From Bacilli bacterium (GTDB lineage: Bacteria > Bacillota_I > Bacilli_A > RFN20 > CAG-826): DNA of 64,000 nucleotides. The stretch is from NCBI GenBank assembly GCA_024408505.1, contig JAKSUZ010000006.1:1-64000 (forward strand). Reading direction: 5' to 3'. The notes below the pieces were generated by a model, which was not told the origin of the DNA, made no database searches, and saw only the letters and a list, made by a program, of their open reading frames with translations. Made by a program: the position numbers and the translations under genes. Shown piece after piece: positions 1 through 23,758 of the stretch. Each line of letters begins with the position of its first letter. Position 1 is the stretch's first letter.

Positions 1-340
1 AAGTTGATGGTGTTATCGATGTGACGGTTCAAACTATTCAAGTTAATGGTAATAATGAACTTGTTGCCTATGTTGCGACTAAAGACAAAGCCATTAAAGA
101 TAAAGTTATTAAATATGTCGCGAGCCATAAGCCCGCTTATATGGTTCCTAGCCACGTGATGGTTTTAGATAAGATTCCGCTTAACGTTAATGGCAAAGTT
201 GATAAACGTGCGTTACCGAAAGTAGATGTCAGTAGTAAGAAAGTTAGCTATGTTGCTCCAACTAATGATGTTGAAAAGACTATTTGTGATGCCTTCGCGA
301 AAGTCTTTAATTTAAAACAAGTTGGTGTGAATGATGATTT
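1..340 (+). repeat. NRPS internal repeat copy, identical to 4177-4516
   Basis: Read base by base, 1-340 matches 4177-4516 exactly (constant offset 4176). It covers the end of an adenylation domain, the linker and the start of the carrier domain. Identity stops at the carrier Ser motif, where the first copy continues as DDFNLLGGDS and the second as DDFLSLGGDS. Confidence 0.9.
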
Positions 341-3300
341 TAATTTACTTGGTGGTGACTCCATAAAAGCTATTCGTTTAGTAAGTGTTTTAAATAGTCA
401 ACATTTAATAGTCGAAGCGAACCAAATTCTTTCTTTGCGTACTCCGAAAGCTATTAGTAGCGCAATTAGCCAGAAAGAAATGAAAATTTATGATCCGGTT
501 GTAGGAGAAATCGGTTTATCGCCAATTCAAGAATACTTCTTTAATAGCGTTACTGATAAGGATAATTACAAACAATTTTACGTTGTTGAGGCCGCTGAGC
601 CACTTGACTTAGATCGCTTGCAAAAGGCATTCAATCAATTAACTAATCTTCAAGATCAGCTGCGTGCAAGTTACGTTAATCATCAACAAATTATCCGTCC
701 GCTTAATACGGTTGTAAGTAAAATTACAGCAATAACGACTAAAGAAAATATTCAAAAAGCAATTATTCATGAAATCGATAAGTCAATTGCTTCACTTAGC
801 TTAAAAAATAACCATCTTATTGATATTAAATTAATTAATAATCGCTATCTTGTTTTGACTATTCACCATTTAATTATTGACGGTGTTTCGTGGTCAATCT
901 TACTCGATAATCTTACTTTATTATACGAAGGAAAAGAATTTACGCGTCCTTATCCTTATTCTTCCTTTATTAAAGACATTAGAAAGTATAGTAGTGGTAT
1001 TTCTCAAAGCACAATTGAAAAATATCAATCGATTAATGATTTAGTAGATGAAGAAGCTATTAAAGGAAGTCCAATCGCGATTGCTGACCATTTTAAATCT
1101 TCGTTTGTCTCCAATAATCCGTATGAATTGTCGGAAAATGATTATCTTTTATTGGCAATCGCTCGCGCCTATAAGAAAACGTATGGTCGTGATATTATCT
1201 GTGGAATGGAATCGCATGGCCGAGATGAAACGTTAACAGATGTTAATCAAACGATTGGCTGGTGTACCGCAATTTATCCGTCATTATTTGAAGTATCTAC
1301 AAAGAATTCTCATTTTGATTTAATTAATGATTTATGTGCGATTAAAAAGGCAACAGTAAATAACGCACACTTAGGGATTGATTATTTAGTTTCGTGTTAC
1401 TATTTAAAACAACTTAAATTTAAACATTCACCAGTTACCTTTAATTTCTTAAGCGACGAATTTTCTTATAACAATCATTTATTTAGAACATTATCACTAG
1501 ATAATGATAAAGAAATTGCGCAGCGAATGAATGTAGCGGAAACCATTTATGGCTTGACGCTTAATATTAGCAAATCGCATAATGAATATATTATTACGGG
1601 CACTTGTCCTAAGCACACATACTTAAGCGACAAATATCAATCCTTTATCGCTAATCTTAAATTAGAAGCAAAAAATATTGCAACAGCTTTAAATAGTAAA
1701 ACTTATGTATATCCACTTTATGAAGAGCCTCTTGGCGTTTATCTTGATGAGAAGGTTAATAATAAAGGAACATCGTATTCGTGCTTTGGCTATGTAAAAT
1801 TTGAACAAAAAATATCACTTGATACGGCTAAAGCAAAAATCTCTCAACTTCTTGACTTCCATCCGGTTTTAAAAACACGAATTCTTGATGTTAATGGCCT
1901 ACCTTATGGTTTAACTGATGGCGAAGTGGGAATTAATGTTCTTAATAAAAACTTTGCCGAAATCGATTTAAATGATTTAGTGTTGCCGTTCAATTTTGCT
2001 AAATCGTTATCTCGTTTCTTCATTATCCAATCGAAAAATAATACTTATCTCGCTTATGATATGCATCATATGATAAGCGATGCTTCCTCACGCTTCTTAA
2101 TTAATAAAGAATTAACAGGCGAAATTACTAAAAAGATTGATTTGGGCTTTATGAAAAAAGCTTATGCAAACTTAAAACGTGATTATCAAGATTTATTAAA
2201 ATTAGCAAAAGAATTCTACGAAAGAGACTTTGTTGATAGCGGGAATATTATTGAATTAATTGATGACATAAATAATGATTATGGTGGTCTTGCAAGCGTT
2301 TATCTTGGTGATATTAAGGAAAAACTGATCGCATTAGCGAATCGTCTTTCAATTACACCAAATAATATATTAACAAGCGCTTTTGCTTATACTCTATCTC
2401 GATTTATCAATAATGATAAAGTCTATTTCACTTTTACAAATCATGGTCGTGATTTAGATGGTTTAGATGCCGCGCTTGGTATGTATGTCAAAACTATTCC
2501 AATTGTTTTGAATACAAATAATAAATCAGTGGATGATTATCTAAAAGGATCTTCAAAGCACATTTTAGATGCAATGAAGCATAGCGTTTTCCCATTCCGC
2601 TTAGTTGCAAGTGAATATCACCTTAAGAAAAATGTTTCGTTTGAATATAATACGAATCTAAATGATGTGACTGGTGTCAGTGAATCGATTTATTATAAAC
2701 CAGATAAAGAAAAGCACATTTCTCATGTATCGCATTTATTAGGCGTTATCAATGATTATCAAAATGGTTATGTATTAAGCATCGAGCATTCTAGTAGATA
2801 CACAAAAAATACCATAATTCGTTTCCTAAAAACATATCAAAAAATTATTATTGGCTTATTAAATAATAAAGAATTAAAGGACATCAACTACACTCTTGAT
2901 GAAGATCTTAGTGTCTTTAATAAAATTAATGCGACTTCAACTAAACTTGTTTATCACGATATTTTAGAAGCCTTTAATAATTCGCTTAAGAAATACCCAA
3001 ATAACACATTAGTAACTTATCTTGATAATAAATATACCTATAAAGAAGGCGCGAAATGGATTAATAATCTTACTAATAAACTAAATAACATTCCTCAAGG
3101 TAGTAATATAGCTATCTTAACTCATCGTTCTCACTATTATTTATTAACAGCCCTTGCGGTTCTTAATCATGGTTCTACTTATGTTCCAATTGATGATACT
3201 TATCCTGATGAACGAATTAAGTTTATGCTTAAAGATAGTGGGGCGAAATGTGTCTTAGTTACTAGCGAAATGGTTTCTCGCATTAAGACATTGACTGATA

Positions 3301-6300
3301 TCCCGTTTGTTAATGTGAGTGATATTAGGGCAATTGGAGAACTTAAGCCTCTTAAGATAAACACTAACGAAGATAGCGTGGCCATAATTTTATATACCTC
3401 TGGCACAACGGGAACACCTAAGGGTTCTTTAATTACTCGTAGAGCCATTCTTAATCTCGCTGAATGGTATGTTCATGATACGAAATTAACAAATCATGAT
3501 ATTTATTCAATGTATGTATCATATGTTTTTGATATGCATACTTTAGGATTCTATACGCCTTTAATTGTCGGCGCATCGTTAGATATTGTACCGTTCAATG
3601 TTCGCTTAAATCTTAATGATCTTAATAAACATTTTAATAAAGTTGGTGGCACTCATACATATATGACCGCTCAAGTAGGTAAATTATATGCGGAAGGCGG
3701 ATATAAAACACCAATTAAACTTCTTTGTTTTGGCGGTATGAAGCTTGGCGAACTTCACGCGCCTAATTCAATTGGAGCGTTTGAATCATATGGTCCAACT
3801 GAAAACTTAGCGATTACGACTTCAATCTTTGCAAATAAACGAATTCATCATTCATCTATTGGTAACTTCATTCATAACGTTAAAGGATATATCTTAGATC
3901 ATGAACACCGTTTAGTGCCTTATGGCGCGATGGGTGAACTCTACCTATCCGGTTATCAACTCGCGAAAGGATATCTTAATCGAAAGAAAGAAAACGAAGC
4001 GGCTTTCTTTAAAAATCCATTTACTAACGAAAAAGGATACGAAGTCTTATATAAGACAGGTGATATTGTTAGACTCTTACCTGATCATACCTTAGGGATT
4101 ATTGGTCGCGTTGACTCTCAAGTCAAGATTCGGGGTAACCGCGTAGAATTAGGTGAAGTAGAAACATGTATTAAACAAGTTGATGGTGTTATCGATGTGA
4201 CGGTTCAAACTATTCAAGTTAATGGTAATAATGAACTTGTTGCCTATGTTGCGACTAAAGACAAAGCCATTAAAGATAAAGTTATTAAATATGTCGCGAG
4301 CCATAAGCCCGCTTATATGGTTCCTAGCCACGTGATGGTTTTAGATAAGATTCCGCTTAACGTTAATGGCAAAGTTGATAAACGTGCGTTACCGAAAGTA
4401 GATGTCAGTAGTAAGAAAGTTAGCTATGTTGCTCCAACTAATGATGTTGAAAAGACTATTTGTGATGCCTTCGCGAAAGTCTTTAATTTAAAACAAGTTG
4501 GTGTGAATGATGATTTCCTTAGTCTAGGTGGTGATTCACTTACCGCAATTCGTCTATTAGCGTTCTTAAAAGATTATCAATTAACCGCTGCGGATATTAC
4601 TAACTTAAAAACTCCAAGACTCATTAGTGAGAAGATTTCGGGTAGTAAGTCATTAAGTCTTGATTTAAATAAATATAGTCTCGTAACTGGTGCGCCTTTA
4701 AGTGAACAACAACTTAATATTTATCTTGATATTGTAATGAATAAGAAGGTAGATGCCTATCTTATTCCGCTGGTAACAAATTTAGAAAAATATTCATCTA
4801 ATGATGTTATTAAAGCTTTAGATAAAATGTTTGAAATTCACCCTATTCTGAAAGGATATGTTGATAATAAAAATGACACTCCTTTTATTAAAATAGGTAA
4901 AAAACCAAACACGAAAGTTGTCGACAATAACACAAAAATCGATTTAACTAAATTCTTATCGACACCATTTGACATTTATCACGAATTATCTCGTTTCTTA
5001 TATTGCAAAGAGAACAAAACTTTATATGCCGTGTTCCATCATATGATTTTTGATGGTCTATCAACCTTAGTGTTCTCTAATCACCTCTTAGCGATCCTTA
5101 ATAAAAAGGAAGTTGAACCTGATCTTGCTTTCTTAAAAGCCAGTGCCTTTAGTCAAGAAATTAAGAAAACAAATTTATACCAAGAAGCCGAAATATTCTA
5201 TGAAAAAGAATTCGTTGATAGTGAAAAGATTGTGGAGCCTCTCCCGGATATTGGTGAACATCAACCAAGTTATACTTCTTTAAAATTAAAAGTTGATCAA
5301 AAGCGCATTGATAGTTTTATTAAACGACACGAAATTACCAAGAACGTGCTCTTTACTAGTGTCTTTGCCTATACGCTTTCACGCTTTACTAATACCAATG
5401 ATGCTTATTTCACAATGATTGAAAACGGGCGAAGTCGTCTTGATGCGCGTGAGGCGATTGGAATGTTTGTCAATACCTTACCTTTACTTATTGATTGCTC
5501 GAATGATTCAATTGCTAACTTTATTAAGAAGAGTAAAGAAAAGATTTATCAAACCATTAACTATAATTTCTATCCGTTTAGATTATTAAATAATAAATAT
5601 CGAATAAGCGCGAACGTTCTCTTTCAATATCAGCCCGGTGTTAAGCAAACCAAATCGATGAACGATAAGGGATTTATTGGTAAAGATGATTTAGCCAATC
5701 GTAATGATTTTAACGCTGAACTTTCGTTCGTTCTATCTAGTTCTGATACTGATAATTATCTTGATGTGATTGCGGGCAAAAAATACGCATCTTCAACTAT
5801 CAAAAAAATTCTCTTAACCTATGAGCGGATTCTTTGCGAATTTTTGATTAAGGATAATTTAAAAGATATTAATTATACACTTGCTGAAGATATTAAAGTT
5901 ATTGATGGAATCAATTCAACAAGAACCAAGCTTAAATATCACGATATTTTAGAAGCTTTTAACAATTCTTTGAAAAAGCATCCTAACCATATATTAGTAA
6001 GTTATTTTAATGAAAAATATACTTATGCTGAGGGCGCAAAATGGATTAATAAATTAGATGATATCTTTATTAGCAAAAAGATAAAACGCTACTCCCATAT
6101 TGCTGTCTTCCCGCATCGTAGCCACTATTATCAATTAGGAGCATTAGCGGTGGAAAATTATAATTCTGCTTATGTACCAATTGATGAAGCGTACCCAAAC
6201 GACCGTATTAAATTTATGATTACGGATACAGCAGCCAGCGCCATCTTGGTTACTAATCAAACATTAGACCGTGCGAAAGAAATAATTAAAGATTTTAAAG

Positions 6301-9300
6301 TTAAACCATTAATTATCAATATGAGCGAAGTAATAATCACTAACCAAGATAAAGTTAAACCATTAACTGCAAAAATTGATCATCAGGATGTTGCTTGTAT
6401 TCTTTATACTTCTGGTACAACTGGGATTCCAAAAGGAGCGTTAATTCTTCATAAAGGAATTATCAATACCGCACAACGCTATGCTACCCAAGTTGCTAAT
6501 TTATGTGATACGGATAAAGTCACTCTTTATGCCTCAGTTGGTTTTGATGTTCATATGGAAGCTCTCCATTCACCAATTTTTGCCGGCGCTACCTTAGACA
6601 TCACACCTACTAATGTGCGTTTAGATCCAATTGCGTTACTTAAACATTTTGAAACTCACCATGTTACACATGTCCACTTACCGACCTCTTTAACTAAAAT
6701 TTTAATTAATCACGAAATTCCATCTTGTATGAAACAAATGGTTACTGGTGGTGCACCGTTAGGAAAAGTAAATACCAATCTTCCTTGCGATTTTAAAGAT
6801 GTGTATGGACCAACAGAAGCAACAATTAACGTTGCCGCTATTCGCGTGAAGGATAAAATTGATCCGACTAGTGTAGGTAAACCATTAATGAATTCTCGTT
6901 GTTATATCCTTGATAAGGAACATCGCTTAACCCCGTTTGGTGGTGTGGGTGATTTATATCTATGTGGTTACCAAGTATGCAAAGGTTACCTTAATCGCGA
7001 TAAGGAAAATAAAGAAGCGTTCTTTAAGAACCCTTTCACTAATGAAGAGGGCTACGAAAGAATATATCGTTCAGGTGACGTTGCGCGTTATTTACCTGAT
7101 GGAACGATTGCCTACCTTGGTCGGAAAGACTCACAAGTAAAGATTCGTGGTAATCGCGTTGAATTAGGCGAAATTGAAGTTACAATTAGAAAAATTAAAG
7201 AGGTAAAAGATGTTACTGTTCAAGTCATTGTTAATGATGGTAACAAAGAACTTGTCGCGTATGTCGTTTCTTCAAATAAAGATATTAAAAATATCATTAT
7301 TAATTACGTTAGAAATAACCAACCTGAATATATGGTTCCTAGCCACGTGATGGTTTTAGATAAGATTCCGCTTAACGTTAATGGCAAAGTTGATAAACGT
7401 GCGTTACCGAAAGTAGATGTCAGTAGTAAGAAAGTTAGCTATGTTGCTCCAACTAATGATGTTGAAAAGACTATTTGTGATGCCTTCGCGAAAGTCTTTA
7501 ATTTAAAACAAGTTGGTGTGAATGATGATTTCCTTAGTCTAGGTGGTGATTCACTTACCGCAATTCGTCTATTAGCGTTCTTAAAAGATTATCAATTAAC
7601 CGCTGCGGATATTACTAACTTAAAAACTCCAAGACTCATTAGTGAGAAGATTTCGGGTAGTAAGTCATTAAGTCTTGATTTAAATAAATATAGTCTTGTA
7701 ACTGGTGCGCCTTTAAGCGAACAGCAACTTAATATTTATCTTGATATTGTAATGAATAAGAAGGTTGAATCCTATCTTAACCCACTTGTTTTTAAATATG
7801 ATAAATATACATCGAATGATATCAAGAATGCTCTAACTAAATTGTTTAAGTGTCATCCGATTTTAACTGGTTACATTGAAAATGATTCTGATAATAATCC
7901 TTATTTAAAAATCGGCCATACACCTATGATTGAGGTTCTAAAGGATTTAAGGAAAAATGATATTAATAGTTATATCGCTGAGCCTTTTAACATTCATAAA
8001 TCATTATCACGTTTCCTTATTGATGAGAATAGCAAAACTTTATATGCGGTGTTCCATCATATAATTTTTGATGCTTTATCTCGTGCTGTTTTTAGAAATC
8101 ACCTCTTAGCGATCCTTAATAAAAAGGAAGTTGAACCTGATCTTGCTTTCTTAAAAGCCAGTGCCTTTAGTCAAGAAATTAAGAAAACAAATTTATACCA
8201 AGAAGCCGAAATATTCTATGAAAAAGAATTCGTTGATAGTGAAAAGATTGTGGAGCCTCTCCCGGATATTGGTGAACATCAACCAAGTTATACTTCTTTA
8301 AAATTAAAAGTTGATCAAAAGCGCATTGATAGTTTTATTAAACGACACGAAATTACCAAGAACGTGCTCTTTACTAGTGTCTTTGCCTATACGCTTTCAC
8401 GCTTTACTAATACCAATGATGCTTATTTCACAATGATTGAAAACGGGCGAAGTCGTCTTGATGCGCGTGAGGCGATTGGAATGTTTGTCAATACCTTACC
8501 TTTACTTATTGATTGCTCGAATGATTCAATTGCTAACTTTATTAAGAAGAGTAAAGAAAAGATTTATCAAACCATTAACTATAATTTCTATCCGTTTAGA
8601 TTACTTAAGAATAAATATAATTTATCCGCGAATATTGATTTCCAATATCAACCAAATAACTTTAGTAGTCATCTGGATACGAACGCGCATAATTTACTTT
8701 ATCGTGATAACTTAAAGAAACGAACCGATTTAATTAGTGATTTAGCGATTGTTGCTACCGATAACGAAATTAATATTGTTAGTAGCAAAAAATATGCCCA
8801 ATCGACCATTAAAAAGATGTTATCTACCTATGAGCAGATTCTTAACGAGATTTTAGTGAAGAATTCTTTAGCGGATATCAATTATACTCTTAATGAAGAT
8901 CTTAGTGTCTTTAATAAAATTAATGCGACCTCAACTAAACTCGTTTATCACGATATCTTAGAAGCCTTTAATCATTCACTTAAGAAATATCCGAATAATA
9001 CTTTAGTGAGTTACCTCGATACTAAATATACATATTCTGAAGGCGCGAAATGGATTAATAATCTTACTAATAAACTAAATAACGTTCCTAAGAAGAGCAA
9101 TATCGCAATCCTTACTCATAGATCCCACTTCTATCTATTAACGGCCTTAAGCGTTTTAAATCATGGTTCCGCCTATGTTCCAATTGATGATACTTATCCG
9201 GATGAAAGAATTAAGTTCATGCTTAAAGATAGTAATGCGAAAGTAGTGTTAGTCACAGATGAAACCATTAACCGTGTTAAGAAACTTACTAATATTCCTG

Positions 9301-11390
9301 TTATTAATGTAAGTGATATTAAATCATCAGGAACACTGAAACCGTTAAAGACTAACAATAAAGATGATTTAGCCGCGGTCATTTTATATACCTCAGGGAC
9401 AACCGGAACACCAAAAGGTACGATTTTGCCTCGGAAAGCGATTTTGAATTTAGCGGAATGGTGCGCGCACTTCACCTCTTTAACTAAAACTGATGTATTC
9501 GCGTTATATGTTTCAATTGGTTTTGACGTCCATATTGGTTCGCTTTATTCCCCTTTATTAACCGGGGCAAGTTTAAACGTTATTCCTACGGATATCCGTC
9601 TTGATCCAAACCAGCTTATTAATTATTTTAACCAATATCATATTAGCCATGTCTTCTCGGTTACCGCTTTAACCAGAATCCTTCTTGATAATCAACTACC
9701 AAAAGAATTGCGGGTCATGTTTACTGGTGGTGAAGCCTTAGGCGAAGTTAATCAACATCTTACTTGTTCTTTATATGATGCTTATGGACCAACTGAGTCG
9801 ACGGTCTTATCAACAGTAATTGATGTAAAAAAGAAAATATCAGCTTCTAGTGTCGGTCATCTTTTAGCAAATATTAAAGGTTACGTCTTAGATCATGAGC
9901 GGCGTCTCGTCCCTTATGGCGCGATGGGTGAACTCTACCTATCCGGTTATCAACTCGCGAAAGGATATTTAAATCGAGATAAAGAAAATAAAGAAGCTTT
10001 CTATCTTAATCCATTCTCGAAAGAAAAAGGTTATGAAAGAATGTATAAGACGGGAGATATCGTTAGATACTTACCTGATGGGACCTTTGGCTTTATTGGT
10101 CGAGTGGACTCTCAAGTTAAAATCCGTGGTAACCGTGTTGAACTAGGTGAAGTAGAAGCAACCATTCGCGAAGTTAAAGAAGTTAAAGATGTCACAGTTC
10201 AAACTATGATTAATAATAACAATAAAGAACTTGTCGCCTATCTTGTCTCTAGTGATAAAGCCATTAAAGATAAAGTTATTAAATATGTCGCGAGCCATAA
10301 GCCCGCTTATATGGTTCCTAGCCACGTGATGGTTTTAGATAAGATACCGCTTAATGTTAATGGCAAAGTTGATAAACGCGCGTTACCGAAAGTAGATGTC
10401 AGCGCGAATATTCATTCTTGTCAACCACCTCGTAATAAATTAGAACAAAGAATGGTTGATTGTGCGAAAAATTTATTTAAACTTGCCTCACAAAAAATAG
10501 GAATCGACACAAACATGAATAATCTAGGCTTAGATTCATTAATAGCATTACGCTTGTCACTTCTTTATAAGGCACGCGCTAATATTAGTATTGGCGCTAT
10601 CGATATTATCAATAATCCAACTATTGAAAAGCAGATTGCGTTTGTTAAAAAGTTCACATATCAACCGATTCATACCTTCAATTTAAGCAAGGGCAAAAAA
10701 CATTTATTCTTTGTCCACCCTGGACAAGGTGGTAGTGAATCATATCAAGAATTAGCAAAATTACTAGGAAAGAATGTTTCCTTCTCGGTTTTTGAGCATT
10801 ACAATTTATTCCACCTTAATCAAAGAATCAAAGGAATTAAAAACATTGCGAAATATTATGTTAAATTATTGAAAGCGCAGCAACCGCATGGGCCATATTA
10901 TTTAGGCGGTTATTCTTATGGTGGCAATATTGCATATGAAATGGCGGTTATTTTAGCTAAAGATCATGAAGAAGTTAGGAACCTTTTCTTGCTCGATTCA
11001 GCTACAAGAAGCGTACCGCTATCAAAGGAAGAGATGATTAAATTAGTCGATGCGGAAACAAAAAATATCACTATCAAACAAAAGAATTTAACTAATGAAA
11101 TGGCAACTGCTTATAAGACAATTTCGTTATTTGTATCCGAAGATTTAAATGGCTATTCACCATCTCGATATGATGGAGAAGTAACATTCTTTAAGGCTAA
11201 CAAAAAGAATAAAAAGATTGCGGGGTTACCAAAGTCAACATACCAAAAAATTTCTTCATCTAGAAACTTATACTTAAAGAAAAAAGCAAATTTTATAATA
11301 TGCGATATTGATGCTTCGCATGATGAATTGTTAGACGAAAAACCGAGAAACAAAATTGCAAAAATTATTGTAAAGCAACTTCTTAATTAA
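1..11390 (+). CDS. Non-ribosomal peptide synthetase, 3' part: (A)-PCP-E-C-A-PCP-C-A-PCP-C-A-PCP-TE
   Basis: Multimodular assembly line that activates amino acids as adenylates, loads them on carrier domains, condenses them and releases the peptide. The frame is open at the left edge (first full codon at base 3), so the N-terminus is missing; the GTG at 21 is internal. Numbering residues from that GTG: adenylation C-subdomain with the NGKVDKRALP motif (~57), carrier LGGDS with Ser114, epimerization domain (HHLIIDGVSW at 282, ESHGR, GWCTAIYP), condensation HHMISDA at 682, adenylation YTSGTTG at 1125, carrier Ser1506, condensation HHMIFDG at 1673, adenylation YTSGTTG at 2129, carrier Ser2511, condensation HHIIFDA at 2679, adenylation YTSGTTG at 3123, carrier LGLDS Ser3506, thioesterase GYSYGG Ser3632 with a later ASHDE His. 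The thioesterase should release a free or cyclic peptide. Substrates cannot be assigned. I see no clear terminator after the stop. Domain order is sure; product unknown. Confidence 0.95.
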   Translation, partial: VDGVIDVTVQTIQVNGNNELVAYVATKDKAIKDKVIKYVASHKPAYMVPSHVMVLDKIPLNVNGKVDKRALPKVDVSSKKVSYVAPTNDVEKTICDAFAKVFNLKQVGVNDDFNLLGGDSIKAIRLVSVLNSQHLIVEANQILSLRTPKAISSAISQKEMKIYDPVVGEIGLSPIQEYFFNSVTDKDNYKQFYVVEAAEPLDLDRLQKAFNQLTNLQDQLRASYVNHQQIIRPLNTVVSKITAITTKENIQKAIIHEIDKSIASLSLKNNHLIDIKLINNRYLVLTIHHLIIDGVSWSILLDNLTLLYEGKEFTRPYPYSSFIKDIRKYSSGISQSTIEKYQSINDLVDEEAIKGSPIAIADHFKSSFVSNNPYELSENDYLLLAIARAYKKTYGRDIICGMESHGRDETLTDVNQTIGWCTAIYPSLFEVSTKNSHFDLINDLCAIKKATVNNAHLGIDYLVSCYYLKQLKFKHSPVTFNFLSDEFSYNNHLFRTLSLDNDKEIAQRMNVAETIYGLTLNISKSHNEYIITGTCPKHTYLSDKYQSFIANLKLEAKNIATALNSKTYVYPLYEEPLGVYLDEKVNNKGTSYSCFGYVKFEQKISLDTAKAKISQLLDFHPVLKTRILDVNGLPYGLTDGEVGINVLNKNFAEIDLNDLVLPFNFAKSLSRFFIIQSKNNTYLAYDMHHMISDASSRFLINKELTGEITKKIDLGFMKKAYANLKRDYQDLLKLAKEFYERDFVDSGNIIELIDDINNDYGGLASVYLGDIKEKLIALANRLSITPNNILTSAFAYTLSRFINNDKVYFTFTNHGRDLDGLDAALGMYVKTIPIVLNTNNKSVDDYLKGSSKHILDAMKHSVFPFRLVASEYHLKKNVSFEYNTNLNDVTGVSESIYYKPDKEKHISHVSHLLGVINDYQNGYVLSIEHSSRYTKNTIIRFLKTYQKIIIGLLNNKELKDINYTLDEDLSVFNKINATSTKLVYHDILEAFNNSLKKYPNNTLVTYLDNKYTYKEGAKWINNLTNKLNNIPQGSNIAILTHRSHYYLLTALAVLNHGSTYVPIDDTYPDERIKFMLKDSGAKCVLVTSEMVSRIKTLTDIPFVNVSDIRAIGELKPLKINTNEDSVAIILYTSGTTGTPKGSLITRRAILNLAEWYVHDTKLTNHDIYSMYVSYVFDMHTLGFYTPLIVGASLDIVPFNVRLNLNDLNKHFNKVGGTHTYMTAQVGKLYAEGGYKTPIKLLCFGGMKLGELHAPNSIGAFESYGPTENLAITTSIFANKRIHHSSIGNFIHNVKGYILDHEHRLVPYGAMGELYLSGYQLAKGYLNRKKENEAAFFKNPFTNEKGYEVLYKTGDIVRLLPDHTLGIIGRVDSQVKIRGNRVELGEVETCIKQVDGVIDVTVQTIQVNGNNELVAYVATKDKAIKDKVIKYVASHKPAYMVPSHVMVLDKIPLNVNGKVDKRALPKVDVSSKKVSYVAPTNDVEKTICDAFAKVFNLKQVGVNDDFLSLGGDSLTAIRLLAFLKDYQLTAADITNLKTPRLISEKISGSKSLSLDLNKYSLVTGAPLSEQQLNIYLDIVMNKKVDAYLIPLVTNLEKYSSNDVIKALDKMFEIHPILKGYVDNKNDTPFIKIGKKPNTKVVDNNTKIDLTKFLSTPFDIYHELSRFLYCKENKTLYAVFHHMIFDGLSTLVFSNHLLAILNKKEVEPDLAFLKASAFSQEIKKTNLYQEAEIFYEKEFVDSEKIVEPLPDIGEHQPSYTSLKLKVDQKRIDSFIKRHEITKNVLFTSVFAYTLSRFTNTNDAYFTMIENGRSRLDAREAIGMFVNTLPLLIDCSNDSIANFIKKSKEKIYQTINYNFYPFRLLNNKYRISANVLFQYQPGVKQTKSMNDKGFIGKDDLANRNDFNAELSFVLSSSDTDNYLDVIAGKKYASSTIKKILLTYERILCEFLIKDNLKDINYTLAEDIKVIDGINSTRTKLKYHDILEAFNNSLKKHPNHILVSYFNEKYTYAEGAKWINKLDDIFISKKIKRYSHIAVFPHRSHYYQLGALAVENYNSAYVPIDEAYPNDRIKFMITDTAASAILVTNQTLDRAKEIIKDFKVKPLIINMSEVIITNQDKVKPLTAKIDHQDVACILYTSGTTGIPKGALILHKGIINTAQRYATQVANLCDTDKVTLYASVGFDVHMEALHSPIFAGATLDITPTNVRLDPIALLKHFETHHVTHVHLPTSLTKILINHEIPSCMKQMVTGGAPLGKVNTNLPCDFKDVYGPTEATINVAAIRVKDKIDPTSVGKPLMNSRCYILDKEHRLTPFGGVGDLYLCGYQVCKGYLNRDKENKEAFFKNPFTNEEGYERIYRSGDVARYLPDGTIAYLGRKDSQVKIRGNRVELGEIEVTIRKIKEVKDVTVQVIVNDGNKELVAYVVSSNKDIKNIIINYVRNNQPEYMVPSHVMVLDKIPLNVNGKVDKRALPKVDVSSKKVSYVAPTNDVEKTICDAFAKVFNLKQVGVNDDFLSLGGDSLTAIRLLAFLKDYQLTAADITNLKTPRLISEKISGSKSLSLDLNKYSLVTGAPLSEQQLNIYLDIVMNKKVESYLNPLVFKYDKYTSNDIKNALTKLFKCHPILTGYIENDSDNNPYLKIGHTPMIEVLKDLRKNDINSYIAEPFNIHKSLSRFLIDENSKTLYAVFHHIIFDALSRAVFRNHLLAILNKKEVEPDLAFLKASAFSQEIKKTNLYQEAEIFYEKEFVDSEKIVEPLPDIGEHQPSYTSLKLKVDQKRIDSFIKRHEITKNVLFTSVFAYTLSRFTNTNDAYFTMIENGRSRLDAREAIGMFVNTLPLLIDCSNDSIANFIKKSKEKIYQTINYNFYPFRLLKNKYNLSANIDFQYQPNNFSSHLDTNAHNLLYRDNLKKRTDLISDLAIVATDNEINIVSSKKYAQSTIKKMLSTYEQILNEILVKNSLADINYTLNEDLSVFNKINATSTKLVYHDILEAFNHSLKKYPNNTLVSYLDTKYTYSEGAKWINNLTNKLNNVPKKSNIAILTHRSHFYLLTALSVLNHGSAYVPIDDTYPDERIKFMLKDSNAKVVLVTDETINRVKKLTNIPVINVSDIKSSGTLKPLKTNNKDDLAAVILYTSGTTGTPKGTILPRKAILNLAEWCAHFTSLTKTDVFALYVSIGFDVHIGSLYSPLLTGASLNVIPTDIRLDPNQLINYFNQYHISHVFSVTALTRILLDNQLPKELRVMFTGGEALGEVNQHLTCSLYDAYGPTESTVLSTVIDVKKKISASSVGHLLANIKGYVLDHERRLVPYGAMGELYLSGYQLAKGYLNRDKENKEAFYLNPFSKEKGYERMYKTGDIVRYLPDGTFGFIGRVDSQVKIRGNRVELGEVEATIREVKEVKDVTVQTMINNNNKELVAYLVSSDKAIKDKVIKYVASHKPAYMVPSHVMVLDKIPLNVNGKVDKRALPKVDVSANIHSCQPPRNKLEQRMVDCAKNLFKLASQKIGIDTNMNNLGLDSLIALRLSLLYKARANISIGAIDIINNPTIEKQIAFVKKFTYQPIHTFNLSKGKKHLFFVHPGQGGSESYQELAKLLGKNVSFSVFEHYNLFHLNQRIKGIKNIAKYYVKLLKAQQPHGPYYLGGYSYGGNIAYEMAVILAKDHEEVRNLFLLDSATRSVPLSKEEMIKLVDAETKNITIKQKNLTNEMATAYKTISLFVSEDLNGYSPSRYDGEVTFFKANKKNKKIAGLPKSTYQKISSSRNLYLKKKANFIICDIDASHDELLDEKPRNKIAKIIVKQLLN
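4177..4681 (+). repeat. NRPS internal repeat copy shared with 1-340 and 7329-7696
   Basis: Bases 4177-4516 equal 1-340, and 4314-4681 equal 7329-7696 (offset 3015; first mismatch at 4682). Bases 4314-4516 therefore occur three times without a change. The block spans the adenylation C-subdomain, carrier domain and the entry into the next condensation domain. Confidence 0.9.
5079..5585 (+). repeat. NRPS internal repeat copy, identical to 8097-8603
   Basis: A 507-bp exact match to 8097-8603 (offset 3018). It covers the condensation-domain half that follows the HHxxxDG motif. The flanking first halves of the two condensation domains differ clearly, so identity begins and ends abruptly. Confidence 0.9.
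7329..7696 (+). repeat. NRPS internal repeat copy, identical to 4314-4681
   Basis: A 368-bp exact match to 4314-4681, covering the end of the second complete adenylation domain, its carrier domain and the start of the third condensation domain. Similarity continues with scattered synonymous changes to about 7765. Confidence 0.9.
8097..8603 (+). repeat. NRPS internal repeat copy, identical to 5079-5585
   Basis: Second copy of the 507-bp block in the third condensation domain. Sharp edges against divergent flanks suggest gene conversion or recent segmental exchange within the gene, or an assembly artefact. Confidence 0.9.
10257..10345 (+). repeat. Short NRPS repeat, identical to 4263-4351
   Basis: An 89-bp exact match in the C-subdomain of the last adenylation domain (offset 5994). 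It is followed by near-identical sequence to about 10400, where the linker to the last carrier domain diverges. Confidence 0.85.
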
Positions 11391-11464: not shown

Positions 11465-12378
11465 TAATTTTAAATATTTATGTCTATTCTCAATAGTGGT
11501 AATAGGTGTGGTAGAATTCTCGTCTTCATACCAAGCAATAAAGTTTTACCCATCCTTACAGCATCTTTTAATGTTATCACGTCTTCAATCGTGAAATTTT
11601 CTGGGTTATCCTTATCGTTAGTCCCACCATTAAGATACCAAGTAATACCATATGATATTGCGCTAAATCTCCCGTACAAAATAGTATTCTCGGCGCTTAT
11701 ACTAGTTTGTCATCAATTTTATTTCCGCCCTCTGCCTTATCTAACCAACCATCGAAATTGTATCCTTCACGAGTTGCTTTTTTTAAGACTAAGTGATTCA
11801 CCTTTTCTAGCCATGTTTTATTTTCAGGTGGATTAATAGCATCTTCAGGCAAAATGTATTCAATTTTACATAAATCAGTTGAATCATAAGATTCAACATA
11901 TGTATATAGACTTTTACTAACCCAACCTGTATATGTATATTTAATTTGCTTTTCGTAGTCGTATGAAACAGCTGAATGTGTTTGAGGAAAATAATTTTCT
12001 ACATCCCCTCCTCTAGGAACTTCAACTGTTTCGGTTGGTTTGCCATCAGCATATTCAAAATAATAAGAGGTTGAAATTTTTACACTTTCTTGTTTTTCTT
12101 GATAATTGCAATTTTGCTTATATTCCCATGTATATGTGTATTCATAGTAGTAATCATCATGCTTAGGAGTATTCTCAGGGTAATTTTTTTAACATCTTCG
12201 CCAGTAGGTACTTCTTTATTAACTGAATGACCATCAAAAAATGTAAAACTATAAGTAGTAGATGTAGGAGTAGAAGTCGGTTCTGCCCTGGATCATCTCC
12301 ACCGCCTTTTGAACAAGACGCTAAAACAGATACCGAAAATAGAGCGATGAAACTTAAAAATATGGTCTTCGTTTTCAT
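11465..12378 (-). pseudogene. Frameshifted surface lipoprotein with Listeria-Bacteroides-type repeats
   Basis: The start at 12378 encodes a clean lipoprotein signal (MKTKTIFLSFIALFSVSVLA, then SCSKGGGDD). The frame then breaks near 12285-12290, again at the T-run 12184-12190, near 11695-11705 and near 11535-11550. Joining frames gives a coherent protein with DGHSVNKEVPTGEDV, YADGKPTETVEVP, GYNFDGWLDKAEGG and TWYLNGGTNDKDNPENFT, the pattern of Listeria-Bacteroides / InlB B-repeat surface proteins. The product would have been a cell-surface lipoprotein. It stops abruptly near 11465 with no C-terminal anchor. Four breaks in about 0.9 kb argue for real decay, although two lie in homopolymers and sequencing error cannot be excluded. 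The forward reading frame across 11480-11836 is a shadow. Confidence 0.75.
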
Positions 12379-12500: not shown

Positions 12501-12530
12501 TTAGCCTCTTTTTGTTAAGTAACTAATAAG
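12501..12530 (+). repeat. 30-bp direct repeat, left copy
   Basis: This 30-mer (begins TTAGCCTCTTTTTG, ends AACTAATAAG) is repeated exactly at 12880-12909, so the two copies bracket the small gene at 12567-12836. This copy has no pairing GAGG arm upstream and so is not itself a terminator. Confidence 0.9.
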
Positions 12531-12566: not shown

Positions 12567-12836
12567 ATGAAAAGAGACTTAAAAAGTATGGTGGAATTAA
12601 AAGAATTTCTAAAAAATCCCTCACCGAATTTAAAAGTTCCGGTGTATACTGAAAACGAAGATGGAGCTAAACCAGTGAAAAATACAAAAGATAGAGTCAC
12701 ATTGAAGCAAGTCGTTGATATGATCCAAAAAATGGATGATAAAATGGATGCTGGTTTTAAACAAGTAAATGCCCGTCTTGATTACATCGTAGGCGTAAAT
12801 AATCTAAAAGATCTTCCAAAAACAAAAAGTAAGTAA
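12567..12836 (+). CDS. Small hypothetical protein (89 aa), coiled-coil-like C-terminus
   Basis: Not recognised. The ATG follows a good ribosome binding site (GGAGG) about 10 bases upstream, so it is probably translated. The protein is hydrophilic with no signal or membrane segment: an N-terminal Lys/Leu-rich stretch, a Pro/Asp-rich middle, and from about residue 47 an amphipathic stretch (VVDMIQKMDDKMDAG, then FKQVNARLDYIVG) with heptad-like spacing, suggesting a short coiled coil that could oligomerise. It resembles in style the short coiled-coil proteins of Mollicutes, but I cannot name a family. It sits between two copies of a 30-bp direct repeat and next to a lipoprotein pseudogene, so it may be accessory or mobile. 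Confidence 0.6.
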   Translation: MKRDLKSMVELKEFLKNPSPNLKVPVYTENEDGAKPVKNTKDRVTLKQVVDMIQKMDDKMDAGFKQVNARLDYIVGVNNLKDLPKTKSK

Positions 12837-12909: not shown

Positions 12910-13175
12910 GAGGATATTGTGCATATGCACTTTATCTTTCCTAGGCGCCTACCCTTTATCTCCTTGGTGCTGCAACAAAGGAGGAGAGCGTGCTCGATAC
13001 CATTTTGCTGATGGTAGTATTGACGTTACTGATTGAGTTAATCTCGCGAAGGTAATGAAAAAAGGGCGGTCATCCCGTCCTCAACATTAAGCGAAATAAT
13101 GATAGCACCTCGTAGGAGTCTTGTAAAGGGGCGAGTGCCGACCCGGATCCTTTGGGTCCGGGGTTAAATATTAGT
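12907..13175 (+). promoter_or_regulatory. GC-rich structured leader before the ABC transporter pair
   Basis: This stretch holds no convincing gene but much structure. AAGGAGG at 12907-12913 precedes a possible 28-codon, Arg-rich upstream ORF (ATG 12925, TGA 13009-13011). Hairpins: palindrome GTGCATATGCAC (12919-12930); TACCAT/ATGGTA (12998-13003 with 13011-13016); GGGCGG-TCATC-CCGTCC (13064-13080); GCAC(C)TCG with CGAGTGC (13105-13112 with 13132-13138); CCCGGATCC-TTT-GGGTCCGGG (13142-13162). By hand count 13101-13163 is about 62 percent G+C, far above its surroundings. The last stem includes the only G-rich candidate ribosome site (13160-13163) before the ATG at 13176, so it could hide it. 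No T-run follows, so a terminator is unlikely. I matched no known riboswitch class. Confidence 0.45.
13007..13069 (+). pseudogene. Possible dockerin-like gene remnant
   Basis: In one frame the bases read ADGSIDVTD, a TGA stop (13034-13036), then VNLAKVMKKGR. This resembles one calcium-binding half of a type I dockerin (DGxIDVTDLVxLAKxL). It is too short to prove and overlaps the hairpin-rich leader; chance is possible. Confidence 0.2.
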
Positions 13176-15233
13176 ATGTATAAATTAGTAAATGTAAGTA
13201 AATCGTATGGTAAGGGAATTAATTCAATTAACGTTTTAAAAAGCGTTTGCCTTACTTTTCCACAAGTAGGCTTGGTGTCAATTTTAGGCAAGTCAGGAAG
13301 TGGAAAATCTACACTTTTAAATATCATCGCTGGATTAGATAAACCAACCAATGGGAAAATCTACTTTTCTAACAAGGATTTGAATGGACTAAGCAAGAAA
13401 GAAAAGAAGATTTATCAAAATCAAATTATTGGTGTATTGTTTCAGCACTTTAATTTATTTAATGATTTAAGCTGTCTTGAAAATGTAATGCTCCCAAGTT
13501 TAATTAACGGAGTTAATAGAGAGGATAGTAAAGTAAGAGCCACTAATCTATTTAAACAATATCATCTTGAACATTTAATGAATCAACGGTATGAAACTCT
13601 ATCTGGAGGCGAAAAACAAAGAGTAGCGTTATTAAGAGCGTTAATAAATAGACCAAGAATTATTATCGCAGATGAACCTACTGGCGCGCTAGATAGTCAA
13701 AATAGTGTTTTTATTATGAAAGAATTAAAAACTCTAGCAAAGGATCACCTAGTTATCGTTGTTACACACAACGAAGCACTAATTAAAGATTATGAAGATT
13801 ATCGAATAAATATTGTTGATGGTAAGACCAGTGAATTTAAAGCCGTTTTTAACGAAAGATATGAAGTAAAGCATAGCGGTAAAATAAAATTCAGTGCGGT
13901 TACTCGTTTTATTAAATTGCATCTATTTAAACATAAAGTAAGAAATATTATTGCAGCAAGCTCAATTATGTTCTCTTCACTTTGTTTGTTAGTGTCTTTA
14001 GGTTACATCAATGGTGCAAAGACATCAGTTGATAATTATAAAAAACAATCGCTTTTATACACTTATGCGACGGTTGCAAAGAAAACAAAAATAGAAGTCC
14101 CTGATTCACCGATTATTATTTCAAAACTAACAAGGCCTTCGTTAGAAGAAATTAGTTTTTTAGTTGACAATATTTCATCTTTAATAGTTGCGAATAACTA
14201 TCAAATTGTTTTTCCCTCTGTGCCATCATTTAATTTTGATAATAAAAATATTAGTGACATTGAATTTTCACCAGTTTATGATTTTTCATTATTTCAAAAT
14301 TTATTTACTAGCGGGGTGTTACCACAGCAAGATAATTTTCTTGAGGTTGTGGTAAATGAAGAATTCGCGCATCACTTCGGTTACTCAAATCAAGAAATAA
14401 TTAACCATGTATTTAATCTTGATTCCTTAAGCGACATAAATAGTAAAAGTCCTTTAGGAAAAATCATTAAAGATGAAATTTATTTTAATCAAAAAGTAAA
14501 AATTACTGGTGTAGTAAAAGAATTTGCTTATTTAAATATGCCCCGCGTATATTATCCATATTTAGGTCTTAAAAAAATATTAAGCAATTTCATTTTGCTA
14601 AATTATTCAAAAGAAGTAGGATATAACGTTTCAATTGAGGAAATGATTAGTGACGCTAGTGAAGAAGATGCAAATAGTAGCTATTGCTATAGTTTATTTG
14701 TTAATGATCTTAACGAAGTTAATCAACTCTATGATTTTAAAAAAGAATATGATCAATTAGGAACTTTTGATATCGCTTCAACTAGTTATACTATCTCTTC
14801 GTCCTATCAAGAGATGACTGACATTATTTCAACCTCATTAATTGCGTTTGTGATTATTGCTATTGTTGGAGCGATTTTTATTATTGTTATTACCGCGTAT
14901 TCTAACTTCACACAGAATAAAAAAGAGAGCGCTATTTTATCAGTTCTTGGAACTAATAAATTAGCTATCTTCAATATCTTCAATATTGAGAATCTAATTG
15001 TGGCTGCAGTTGGTATTTTTTCTTCTTTCTTATTATCAATGCCGATTACACTAATCATTAACTCGATCATCGAGAAATCATTTCATCTAAGTAATTTGAT
15101 TGCCGTCCCACTTTTATCATATGTTCCATTTGTGATTTTGATTGTTGCGTTTGTTTTATCAATATTAGCGACTGCCATCCCGTTTTTATTTTACGAGAAC
15201 GGTTTTATTGTTGAGGAGCTTAAAGACGAATGA
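13176..15233 (+). CDS. ABC transporter, fused ATPase and FtsX-type permease (first of pair)
   Basis: Membrane exporter subunit of the MacB/FtsX class, 685 aa from the ATG at 13176; the longer TTG start at 13152 lies inside a hairpin and is less likely. The N-terminal ATPase has Walker A GKSGSGKST, signature LSGGEKQR, Walker B ADEPTGALD and the H-loop THNEA. One membrane segment follows near residue 255-275, then a large extracytoplasmic domain and three C-terminal membrane segments typical of FtsX permeases. It overlaps the second transporter gene by 4 bases (ATGA), so they are probably made together and pair. Such pairs export or remove peptides, lipoproteins or antibiotics. The nearby NRPS suggests peptide export or self-protection, but this is inference. 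The structured leader upstream may control it. Confidence 0.88.
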   Translation: MYKLVNVSKSYGKGINSINVLKSVCLTFPQVGLVSILGKSGSGKSTLLNIIAGLDKPTNGKIYFSNKDLNGLSKKEKKIYQNQIIGVLFQHFNLFNDLSCLENVMLPSLINGVNREDSKVRATNLFKQYHLEHLMNQRYETLSGGEKQRVALLRALINRPRIIIADEPTGALDSQNSVFIMKELKTLAKDHLVIVVTHNEALIKDYEDYRINIVDGKTSEFKAVFNERYEVKHSGKIKFSAVTRFIKLHLFKHKVRNIIAASSIMFSSLCLLVSLGYINGAKTSVDNYKKQSLLYTYATVAKKTKIEVPDSPIIISKLTRPSLEEISFLVDNISSLIVANNYQIVFPSVPSFNFDNKNISDIEFSPVYDFSLFQNLFTSGVLPQQDNFLEVVVNEEFAHHFGYSNQEIINHVFNLDSLSDINSKSPLGKIIKDEIYFNQKVKITGVVKEFAYLNMPRVYYPYLGLKKILSNFILLNYSKEVGYNVSIEEMISDASEEDANSSYCYSLFVNDLNEVNQLYDFKKEYDQLGTFDIASTSYTISSSYQEMTDIISTSLIAFVIIAIVGAIFIIVITAYSNFTQNKKESAILSVLGTNKLAIFNIFNIENLIVAAVGIFSSFLLSMPITLIINSIIEKSFHLSNLIAVPLLSYVPFVILIVAFVLSILATAIPFLFYENGFIVEELKDE

Positions 15234-17989
15234 TTGTTCTAAAAAATATTAATAAACGATATAAGGAAAATGTAATCAGCAATTTTTCTTATTCTTTTCC
15301 TAATATTGGTTTAATCGCAATTTTAGGTGATAGTGGATCAGGTAAATCAACTTTGTTAAACATTATTAGCGGGGTTGATAGTGACTACACAGGCAATTTA
15401 CGAATTGATGATATCAATATCAAATTACTTAATGAAATTGAAAATTCCACCTTCCGTTTGAATAACATTGGATATGTATTCCAAGATTTTCGTTTACTAA
15501 ATTTATTGAGTGTTTTTGACAATGTAATTTTTAATTTAGATGCGGCTTCATCTTTATCAAAAGATGCGAAGAATAAGTTAGTAGATGATGCACTTAAATT
15601 TGTTGGTTTAGAAAAGAAAAAGAAAGTAGCGGTAAATAAATTATCCGGTGGTGAAAAACAGAGAGTTGCCATCGCGCGTGCGATTGTGGGATCACCTAAA
15701 TATTTATTATGTGACGAACCAACCGGAAACTTAGATGATAAAAATGCATTAGCGGTTTTTTCATTAATTAAAGAATATAGTAAAAATCATTTGGTAATAC
15801 TTGTTTCGCACGATCAAGAAAAGACCATTCAATTCGCAGACGAAATTATTTATTTGAAAGATGGCAAAATTAACCATATTGATAAACTTAATGAAATTAA
15901 ACTAGGTGAGACTCCACAAATAAAAATTAATAAGAAAAGTAATATTTCATTATCTTGGGGATTGCGTTTTAGGTCAGGCAAGAAAAAAATCCAAGAAAAG
16001 AAATTTCGCTCTATTTTTACTAATTTAATTTCTTCGATTTCGCTTTTAGCGTTAGGGATTGGCGTTATTGTTACAACTTCTTTACGAAATCAAATTATTT
16101 CATCCTTTGCGAATCTAATTAATCCAAATCAAATTATTGTCACGAAGAAAAGCAATAATCCGAACCCGTACACTAGTTATATCTCGACTGATGAAACAGT
16201 AGTGAAGAAAATTGCAGATGAATATAGCGATTATATGTATGGAATGGGTGTTACTTACTTAAATAATTTTTCTCAGCATTTTCCTGATCGCGACCAAGTC
16301 TATATTGAGTTAAATGGAAGAAAAATTGTTCTACCTTCCTATCATTCAGCGAAATTTAATTCTTATGTATGGCAAGAAGAATGTACATCAGATGTCTTTT
16401 TTCCGACTCTAAAAGATAAACTTGAAATTAACGAAGTTGTGTTGGGTTTAACTTATAGCGATATGCGTAATTTATGTCGTCAATTAGGTTTAGCGGATGA
16501 AACCTATCAAATTCTTGGTAGTTATTTAGCGACACATAGTGTCCCACTCTATTTAGGCATTGATAATATGAGTTGGGAATATGAAAACGATATTGAATTT
16601 ACTTTAAAAAGTGTATACCCATCTTCTGAACCGGAAATTTATCACACTGATAGCTTCTTTAATCAGCACGTTTTTGAAATTGAAGCACAAATGCCTACTA
16701 CTTTAGATATTATGAGCGAACCAGAAAAGCCGTGGACACTTAAAAAGGTTTTTACTTTGCATCTAGCGGAGACACCATCATATTTTGTCGAGAGCTTGCA
16801 ATATGATAAAAAATACGATGATATTTTAATTGAAAGCGCACAAAACTTTTTAGAAGATTCGTGCATTGCCACCGATACCTGTCCAAGCAATATCGTCTTT
16901 GTATTTACATTGGATAAAAATGCAGTTGATGTATCTGACATTATTACCTTTAAGAAAATAACTCCTAGAGTTAAAAGCTTTTATTTATCCACTATTAGTG
17001 GTTATCAAATGCACTCCTCAGGAATGATAATGGGATTTAGCAATAACATCGCCTTTTCTTTTGATGAGGATAAAGCGTTAGCGGTAGGTGATTATTTTTC
17101 AAAGCAAATCGAAGGTGATATGCAAAATTTTCCTGGCACCGCAATTGGAGGCATTACTCGCTTTAATCAAAATCCAGTTTTATTTTCAAGCGATTTAGAT
17201 CAAATCAGTGAAGGCGATTTGCCAAATAACTATAACGAAATTGTTATTTCAACCGGATTAGCGAAATACTTAGGAATTGAGAAACCACTATATGAAAATC
17301 TCTATTATTCAATTTATTCATCGACTTTAGAAGAAGTGATTCTTAATAAATTTAAAGTAGTTGGAATCGTTGAAGAAGAAAAGAACTATATTTATCATTA
17401 TCCGTTATTTTCTATATCTTTCTTCCGAGATAAATTAGGAGTCTCTTCATTTAACTTAGTGCCGACAAGCATGGTAATTAATCTATTAGAAGACACAAAC
17501 ATTGATTTATTGATGGCTGATCTCTCTTCTTCGTTTAAAGAATATAATTTTGCTTGTCCGCTTGAAGAAATTGGAGCTACCGTTGATGAAACAATGAACT
17601 ATGTTACCAGTATTGCAATCATCTTTTCGTGTATTGCTTTAATTATTACAATTTTGTTATTAGCATTAATTAGTTATCTCAATACAATTGAAAGCAAAGG
17701 CGAAATTAATCTATTGAAACACTTAGGACATAATCATAAATCAATTAATGAATATATTGTTTCTCATTCACTAGTAATGAGCATCATTACAACTAGTATA
17801 GCAGTAGTCGAATTAATTATTTTCCAAATCTTTTTATCTTTCTTTTTAGGGAGTTTCTTTGGTACAACCATTTCTTTAACAATCAATGTATTACCGTTTT
17901 TCATTGTTATTATAGTGGGGATGTTATTACCAACCATTATTAGTTATTTAGTTAGCAATTTTACCTTAAGAAAAATGATGAAAAATTAA
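15230..17989 (+). CDS. ABC transporter, fused ATPase and FtsX-type permease (second of pair)
   Basis: 919-aa partner of the preceding gene, overlapping it by 4 bases. N-terminal ATPase: Walker A GDSGSGKST, signature LSGGEKQRVA, Walker B CDEPTGNLD, H-loop SHDQE. A membrane segment lies near residues 260-285. An unusually large extracytoplasmic region of about 500 residues follows, then three C-terminal membrane helices (from about 780). The large outer domain suggests recognition of a bulky or peptide substrate outside the membrane. Both genes carry intact ATPase motifs, so the complex probably has two active ATP sites. Function is known only by class. No terminator is evident after the stop; the next gene begins 45 bases on with its own -10 box. 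Confidence 0.88.
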   Translation: MIVLKNINKRYKENVISNFSYSFPNIGLIAILGDSGSGKSTLLNIISGVDSDYTGNLRIDDINIKLLNEIENSTFRLNNIGYVFQDFRLLNLLSVFDNVIFNLDAASSLSKDAKNKLVDDALKFVGLEKKKKVAVNKLSGGEKQRVAIARAIVGSPKYLLCDEPTGNLDDKNALAVFSLIKEYSKNHLVILVSHDQEKTIQFADEIIYLKDGKINHIDKLNEIKLGETPQIKINKKSNISLSWGLRFRSGKKKIQEKKFRSIFTNLISSISLLALGIGVIVTTSLRNQIISSFANLINPNQIIVTKKSNNPNPYTSYISTDETVVKKIADEYSDYMYGMGVTYLNNFSQHFPDRDQVYIELNGRKIVLPSYHSAKFNSYVWQEECTSDVFFPTLKDKLEINEVVLGLTYSDMRNLCRQLGLADETYQILGSYLATHSVPLYLGIDNMSWEYENDIEFTLKSVYPSSEPEIYHTDSFFNQHVFEIEAQMPTTLDIMSEPEKPWTLKKVFTLHLAETPSYFVESLQYDKKYDDILIESAQNFLEDSCIATDTCPSNIVFVFTLDKNAVDVSDIITFKKITPRVKSFYLSTISGYQMHSSGMIMGFSNNIAFSFDEDKALAVGDYFSKQIEGDMQNFPGTAIGGITRFNQNPVLFSSDLDQISEGDLPNNYNEIVISTGLAKYLGIEKPLYENLYYSIYSSTLEEVILNKFKVVGIVEEEKNYIYHYPLFSISFFRDKLGVSSFNLVPTSMVINLLEDTNIDLLMADLSSSFKEYNFACPLEEIGATVDETMNYVTSIAIIFSCIALIITILLLALISYLNTIESKGEINLLKHLGHNHKSINEYIVSHSLVMSIITTSIAVVELIIFQIFLSFFLGSFFGTTISLTINVLPFFIVIIVGMLLPTIISYLVSNFTLRKMMKN

Positions 17990-23754: not shown

Positions 23755-23758
23755 TTTT

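What the first reader, a model, noticed from the sequence alone, without database searches (positions are those of the whole stretch)
1..11390. Large NRPS with epimerization and thioesterase domains in a small-genome type Bacilli chromosome
Seen: at least four modules ending in TE, with an E domain in the first visible module. Known: the most discussed gut Bacillota NRPS clusters end in reductase domains giving aldehydes and pyrazinones, so a TE-ended line would make a different, probably acidic or cyclic, peptide. Inference: an undescribed peptide of four or more residues with at least one D-residue. The gene has the same AT-rich style as its neighbours, so it is not a fresh import.
Basis: partly seen in the sequence, partly recalled or inferred. 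Interest (0 to 1): 0.8.

Follow-up and report, generated by a model that had tools for sequence, protein, structure and literature searches.

The report
Methanogen-type peptide synthetase in gut Bacilli
A tiny-genome gut bacterium carries a giant peptide-making enzyme whose building modules are most closely related, among everything that could be searched, to those of gut methane-producing archaea rather than to those of its bacterial relatives, so the enzyme has probably moved between domains of life and should make an undescribed small peptide that contains a D-amino acid.

Summary
ORF 3-11390 (3795 aa) is an intact but 5'-truncated NRPS: A(end)-PCP-E-C-A-PCP-C-A-PCP-C-A-PCP-TE. The contig starts inside a 340-bp exact copy of a later module, so the upstream part is missing because assembly stopped at a repeat. 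Contig C20 carries a plausible 5' end: a loading A domain without Asp235, then PCP-C-A. A second NRPS (A-PCP-C-A-PCP-TE) sits between rpoC and dprA on C14, a site that is empty in a congener. An Sfp-type PPTase is present. Codon use is host-like, so 'not a fresh import' holds for timing, not for origin. Modules are mosaics of identical tracts (up to 507 bp) around divergent specificity cores, as gene conversion would give. Most likely product: an N-acylated, roughly four-residue peptide with one D-residue, released by TE. Archaea-to-Bacilli direction is favoured but unproven; Clostridia could not be sampled.

The parts
3..11390 (+). 5'-truncated NRPS gene (3795 aa read, open at contig start)
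   Evidence: open frame and Pfam domains
1..340 (+). exact copy of 4177-4516; assembly break in the A-end/PCP region
   Evidence: 100% identity over 340 bp
3..227 (+). C-terminal end of the first A domain (AMP-binding_C)
   Evidence: Pfam PF13193, profile match
279..464 (+). PCP 1 (GGDSI type, as expected before an E domain)
   Evidence: Pfam PF00550 residues 93-154
501..1703 (+). Epimerization (E) domain, HHLIIDG
   Evidence: best relatives are E domains of G123 and Methanobrevibacter
1704..2987 (+). Condensation domain after E (HHMISDA variant)
3108..4373 (+). A domain, pocket code DMLQCGSAIK
4455..4652 (+). PCP 2 (GGDSL)
4683..5972 (+). Condensation domain 2
6099..7388 (+). A domain, pocket code DVESVGVINK
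7470..7661 (+). PCP 3 (GGDSL)
7698..8981 (+). Condensation domain 3
9102..10367 (+). A domain, pocket code DVGAFGAVLK
10434..10652 (+). PCP 4 (LGLDSL)
   Evidence: PF23297 match
10659..11387 (+). Type I thioesterase (GYSYGG), product release
   Evidence: Pfam PF00975; PDB relatives NocB, EntF and fengycin TE
5079..5585 (+). 507-bp tract identical to 8097-8603 (C-domain halves of two modules)
4314..4681 (+). 368-bp tract identical to 7329-7696 (A end and PCP)
13152..17989 (+). two fused ABC-ATPase/FtsX transporter genes next to the NRPS; conserved in congeners without NRPS, so not specific to it

Best explanation
This is a functional NRPS assembly line whose elongation modules belong to a family otherwise found here in gut methanogen-associated archaea (Methanobrevibacter; Methanomethylophilaceae-type Thermoplasmata). 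An ancestor of this small-genome Bacilli lineage acquired it horizontally, most likely from a methanogen, long enough ago for its codon use to become host-like. It then multiplied and homogenised its modules by duplication and gene conversion. Likely working (inferred from anatomy): a loading A domain without Asp235 (on contig C20) activates a carboxylic acid lacking an alpha-amino group; successive C-A-PCP modules add amino acids; the E domain converts the residue on the first visible PCP to the D form; three further residues are added; the TE releases an acid or a cycle. A second, two-module TE-ended NRPS (C14) makes a shorter acyl-amino-acid-type product. The Sfp-type PPTase beside recA primes the carriers. 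Shown: domain order, intact motifs, phylogenetic placement, codon use, identical tracts, the empty rpoC-dprA site. Inferred: C20 joined to C50, substrates, product, donor and direction.
For: Domains and intact frame. Best public relatives of the last A-PCP-TE region are Methanobrevibacter at 51-54% and Thermoplasmata/Methanomethylophilaceae at 43-63%, besides one congener from horse faeces; within the order everything outside the genus is at most 42%, apart from the G123 fragment at 84%; plasmids give under 30%. C-domain tree: the four window-genome C domains of the common type are one clade, nested among Methanobrevibacter at 96/97; the post-E C domain with G123 is sister to Methanobrevibacter post-E C domains at 100/99; archaeal outgroup 100/100; the family's 2410-aa NRPSs are separate at 100. 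A-domain tree: window and G004 elongation A domains are in a 100-support clade with 27 Methanobrevibacter and 16 Thermoplasmata A domains. Pocket codes: DMLQCGSAIK against DMHQCGSAIK (Methanobrevibacter, two genomes), DVEALGTVSK (C14) against DVEAVGTVSK (Thermoplasmata). E domain: next best after G123 is Methanobrevibacter at ~340 bits, Thermoplasmata ~120. Codon use r = 0.96 with host genes, GC3 0.263 against 0.260. Selection: dN/dS 0.17 against the G123 copy. Mosaic tracts. Empty site in G001. PPTase present in G000, G002 and G004, no comparable full-length match in G001 or G003.
Against: The AU test does not reject Methanobrevibacter C domains as a clade without the window domains (p = 0.18), and the A tree puts the window domains beside Methanobrevibacter rather than inside it. 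The TE does not match the one Methanobrevibacter TE compared, so not all parts share that origin. Clostridia could not be sampled with the genome search, and the one scan of all genomes used only two octapeptides. The C20-C50 join is not bridged by sequence. Substrate codes have no trained predictor here.
Confidence: 0.7

Rival explanations
1. An unsampled bacterial lineage (for example gut Clostridia) is the source, and both the methanogens and this Bacilli lineage received the modules from it independently.
For: Earlier papers propose a bacterial origin of methanogen NRPSs (PMC2812497) and note similarity of Euryarchaeota and Firmicutes NRPSs in the rumen (PMC8241843). Clostridia are not in the sampled tree. 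Long stems (0.65-0.72 changes per site) separate window domains from archaeal ones.
Against: In both the A and C trees the window domains lie within a set whose deeper branches are all archaeal; the all-genome scan returned no other bacterial relative above 29%.
Confidence: 0.35
2. A vertically inherited gut Bacillota NRPS, a diverged version of the reductase-ended 2410-aa enzyme common in this family.
For: Many members of the family carry an NRPS (57 of 224 genomes).
Against: Those enzymes are at most 39% identical over the A-PCP region, fall in another clade with 100 support, and end in NAD_binding_4. Congeners G001 and G003 have no NRPS hit and G001 has the empty rpoC-dprA site.
Confidence: 0.04
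3. Contamination or chimera: archaeal or other NRPS contigs binned with a Bacilli genome.
For: MAG with 53 contigs; NRPS contigs end inside the gene or near an IS3 fragment; long exact repeats may be misassembled.
Against: C50 continues through ychF, ispF and argS in the same order as congeners; C14 is flanked by rpoB-rpoC and dprA-topA; codon use is host-like and less like Methanobrevibacter NRPSs, r = 0.96 against 0.56-0.69; related fragments occur in G004 and G123.
Confidence: 0.04
4. A decaying or inactive relic.
For: In the congener G004 the loading A domain is cut to 98 aa, a later A-domain core is deleted and no TE follows.
Against: In the window genome the frame is open over 3795 aa, core motifs are intact, and dN/dS is 0.17 against G123.
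Confidence: 0.1

Closest known systems
Methanobrevibacter NRPSs (M. ruminantium M1 mru_0351 and mru_0068 as described in PMC2812497; relatives L044, L045, L048, L049 here)
   Same: Same A, C and E domain families; same HHxxxDA variant in the C domain after E; one pocket code 8/9 identical; loading A domains without Asp235
   Different: Host is a bacterium; TE not recognisably related to the one compared; L045 ends in a reductase; several archaeal ones are much longer (5880 aa) or have MatE beside them
Thermoplasmata/Methanomethylophilaceae NRPSs (L047, L052, L216-L220)
   Same: Next clade out in the A and C trees; C14 pocket code 8/9 identical
   Different: The one compared for codon use (L047) is GC3-rich and unlike; more distant (43-47% over the module)
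Reductase-ended two-module NRPS (~2410 aa) of the same Bacilli family; from own knowledge, the gut dipeptide-aldehyde/pyrazinone type
   Same: Same class of enzyme, same family of hosts, small genomes
   Different: C-A-PCP-C-A-PCP-R, no TE, 39% identity or less, separate clade
Aureusimine synthetase AusA, EntF, linear gramicidin synthase LgrA
   Same: Generic NRPS domain architecture; best NCBIfam or PDB sequence matches
   Different: Far below the NCBIfam cut-offs (AusA 1398 of 2500 bits, EntF 906 of 2400)

Membership tests
Type I modular NRPS | Repeated C-A-PCP modules in one chain with intact core motifs | tested here: met
Type I modular NRPS | Sfp-type PPTase in the genome to prime the PCPs | tested here: met
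   204-aa PF01648 + PF22624 protein on C23
Type I modular NRPS | TE with Ser-Asp-His triad at the end | tested here: met
   GYSYGG and Asp/His candidates aligned with C14 TE; Pfam PF00975; triad not checked on a structure
E-domain-containing NRPS (D-residue) | E domain after PCP with HHxxxDG, followed by a C domain of a separate clade | tested here: met
Gut methanogen NRPS module family | A and C domains fall inside the archaeal clade with support | tested here: met
   C 96/97 and 100/99; A 100
Gut methanogen NRPS module family | Nested within Methanobrevibacter rather than beside it | tested here: inconclusive
   AU p = 0.18; A tree places it beside
Reductase-ended gut NRPS (dipeptide aldehyde type) | Terminal NAD_binding_4 reductase domain | tested here: not met
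   TE instead; reductase present in L279
Described NRPS equivalogs (AusA, EntF, MxcG, SolG) | Score above the NCBIfam cut-off | tested here: not met
MIBiG clusters | Close match to a described cluster | not testable with these tools
   no MIBiG or antiSMASH on hand

The most novel reading that the evidence does not exclude
An NRPS assembly line moved from methanogenic archaea into a genome-reduced gut bacterium, kept some binding pockets almost unchanged, and makes a peptide like one made by methanogens, so that two domains of life in the same gut share a secreted peptide.
Probability: 0.35. Interest if true: 0.7.

Novelty: new variant of a known kind. Interest (0 to 1): 0.52.

Why it matters
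NRPS genes in archaea are usually explained as gifts from bacteria. Here, with the sampling available, a bacterium sits inside the archaeal set, in an organism with only about 1.2-1.4 Mb of DNA that spends about 20 kb of it on NRPS genes. If confirmed, it makes exchange of peptide assembly lines between methanogens and gut Bacilli testable, and gives a second, perhaps easier, source for the unknown products of methanogen NRPSs. The identical tracts around divergent specificity cores also give a natural example of how assembly lines keep modules compatible while changing substrates.

Tried and rejected
Vertical origin from the family's 2410-aa NRPS: rejected by identity, tree and release domain. 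Binning error: disfavoured by flanking genes and codon use. ABC transporters as dedicated exporters: the block is conserved in congeners without an NRPS, so no special link. A repeat downstream of both NRPSs (76-119 bp) looked like an NRPS-linked element, but copies lie elsewhere in the genome. Plasmid carriage: nothing above 30% identity in PLSDB. Origin of the TE from the methanogen TE: no meaningful match with the single one tested. One dN/dS comparison (C50 last module against C14) was run out of frame and is discarded. The Condensation search of the whole assembly found only C50, C14 and C20.

Full report
What is there. The window is bases 1-64000 of contig C50 (75.5 kb) in a 1.23-Mb, 53-contig assembly, 86.7% complete. 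One frame runs from base 3 to a stop at 11390. Pfam and own profiles give A(end)-PCP-E-C-A-PCP-C-A-PCP-C-A-PCP-TE. Motifs are intact: HHLIIDG in E, a GGDSI carrier before it and GGDSL carriers before C domains, YTSGTTG in the A domains, GYSYGG in the TE.

Why it is truncated. Bases 1-340 equal 4177-4516 exactly, and 138-340 also equal 7329-7531. The contig ends in a repeat. Contig C20 (5.6 kb) holds an NRPS start: a loading A domain, PCP, C and part of an A domain running off the contig end; 332 bp of it are 99% identical to C50 2874-3205. It is the natural 5' part of the same gene, but about 200 residues between C20 and C50 are not seen, so the join is an inference. In congener G004, contig ends carry a loading-domain remnant followed by C-A, and separately a post-E C domain followed by an A remnant and PCP, which fits the same order.

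A second NRPS. Contig C14 has an 1806-aa A-PCP-C-A-PCP-TE enzyme between rpoC and dprA. In congener G001 rpoC and dprA are about 470 bp apart with nothing large between them. This is an empty site, and shows gain in this lineage or loss in the other. The C50 neighbours (two ABC/FtsX genes, ychF, ispF, argS) are conserved in G001-G004 without an NRPS at that place, while the genes upstream of them differ.

Relatives. A scan of all GTDB-220 genomes with the A(end)-PCP-TE alignment returned one congener (Bacilli bacterium from horse faeces, 84%), then Methanobrevibacter (51-54%) and Thermoplasmata/Methanomethylophilaceae (43-63%), then nothing above 29%. Within the order the enzymes outside the genus are at most 42%, apart from an 84% fragment in G123. 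Within the 19 genomes of the Methanobrevibacter group 4 match strongly, and within 147 of the Thermoplasmata order 16 do at E <= 1e-80.

Trees. In the careful C-domain tree the four ordinary window-genome C domains are a 100/100 clade nested in Methanobrevibacter at 96/97; the post-E C domain and its G123 orthologue are sister to Methanobrevibacter post-E C domains at 100/99. The family's 2410-aa NRPSs are in a separate clade with 100 support. In the A tree window and G004 elongation domains are in a 100-support clade with 27 Methanobrevibacter and 16 Thermoplasmata domains, beside Methanobrevibacter at 88. The AU test does not reject a Methanobrevibacter clade that excludes the window C domains (p = 0.18). 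So placement within the archaeal set is well supported with this sampling; the exact donor and the direction are not.

Pockets. Aligned to LgrA, the codes are DMLQCGSAIK, DVESVGVINK, DVGAFGAVLK (C50) and DVEALGTVSK (C14). Two Methanobrevibacter A domains read DMHQCGSAIK and a Thermoplasmata one DVEAVGTVSK. Loading A domains of C20 and C14 lack Asp235, as do several archaeal loading domains; in established NRPS chemistry Asp235 holds the alpha-amino group, so a starter acid without it is likely. Alignment of these loading domains is uncertain in detail. DVESVGVINK recalls basic-residue pockets from memory only; this is not a prediction.

Age and state. Codon use correlates 0.96 with neighbouring host genes and 0.56-0.69 with Methanobrevibacter NRPSs; GC3 is 0.263 against 0.260. 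The genes are old residents. dN/dS against the G123 copy is 0.17 at dS 1.36, so they were under selection. Within the genome, modules share exact tracts of 507, 368 and 340 bp, while the pocket region (alignment columns 625-750) differs by roughly 30-70% in all pairs. That pattern is expected from gene conversion outside the specificity core. Interior tracts longer than short reads could in part be assembly artefacts; reads would tell.

Supporting genes. The genome has one detectable PPTase of Sfp type beside recA. It is present in G002 (two copies) and G004; a weak, short match in G001 and none in G003 suggest absence there; outside the genus its best matches are Methanobrevibacter at 38-40%. 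This would fit joint acquisition but the identity is low.

Known background. M. ruminantium M1 NRPSs were the first reported in archaea and were proposed to be bacterial in origin (PMC2812497). A rumen survey found many Methanobrevibacter NRPSs and similarity to Firmicutes NRPSs (PMC8241843). Searches for papers joining NRPS with RF39, or archaea-to-bacteria transfer with Methanobrevibacter, gave nothing relevant. I do not know of a report of this specific case, but the library is incomplete. The order and family names of the host could not be read from the tools; only 'Bacilli' from the congener's record title.

Verdict. Real, intact apart from the assembly break, and more interesting for its ancestry than for ending in TE. 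New variant of a known kind.

Noticed in passing
L108:2-2379 and L109:2-1468 (congener G004): NRPS remnants in the congener look decayed: loading A domain cut to 98 aa with the next frame starting inside a C domain, a later A-domain core deleted, no TE. Different genomic neighbours (proS; ATP-grasp) from the window genome.
   Followed up: partly
window 12501-12530, 12880-12909; L008 11679-11797; L281 8623-8698; L290 4112-4188: A 30-bp repeat within a 76-119 bp block (with a small ORF end and a terminator-like hairpin) occurs downstream of both NRPSs and elsewhere in the genome; a 30-bp direct repeat flanks the 89-aa ORF 12567-12836. Looks like a dispersed small repeat or cassette.
   Followed up: partly
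window 11480-12378, - strand: Probably a broken lipoprotein gene (signal MKTKTIFLSFIALFSVSVLASCSKGGG) between the NRPS and the ABC genes; appears frameshifted.
   Followed up: no
L009:2-295 and 840-1900: IS3-type transposase fragment and a broken acyltransferase-like membrane gene upstream of the C20 NRPS start.
   Followed up: no
L044 genome (G224): A Methanobrevibacter MAG has 47 Condensation matches, an unusually large NRPS load for an archaeon, several frames with stops.
   Followed up: no
window 23297-29080: DUF1538 protein (27572-29080) and feoAB with a DtxR-type regulator (23297-26067); ordinary neighbours.
   Followed up: no
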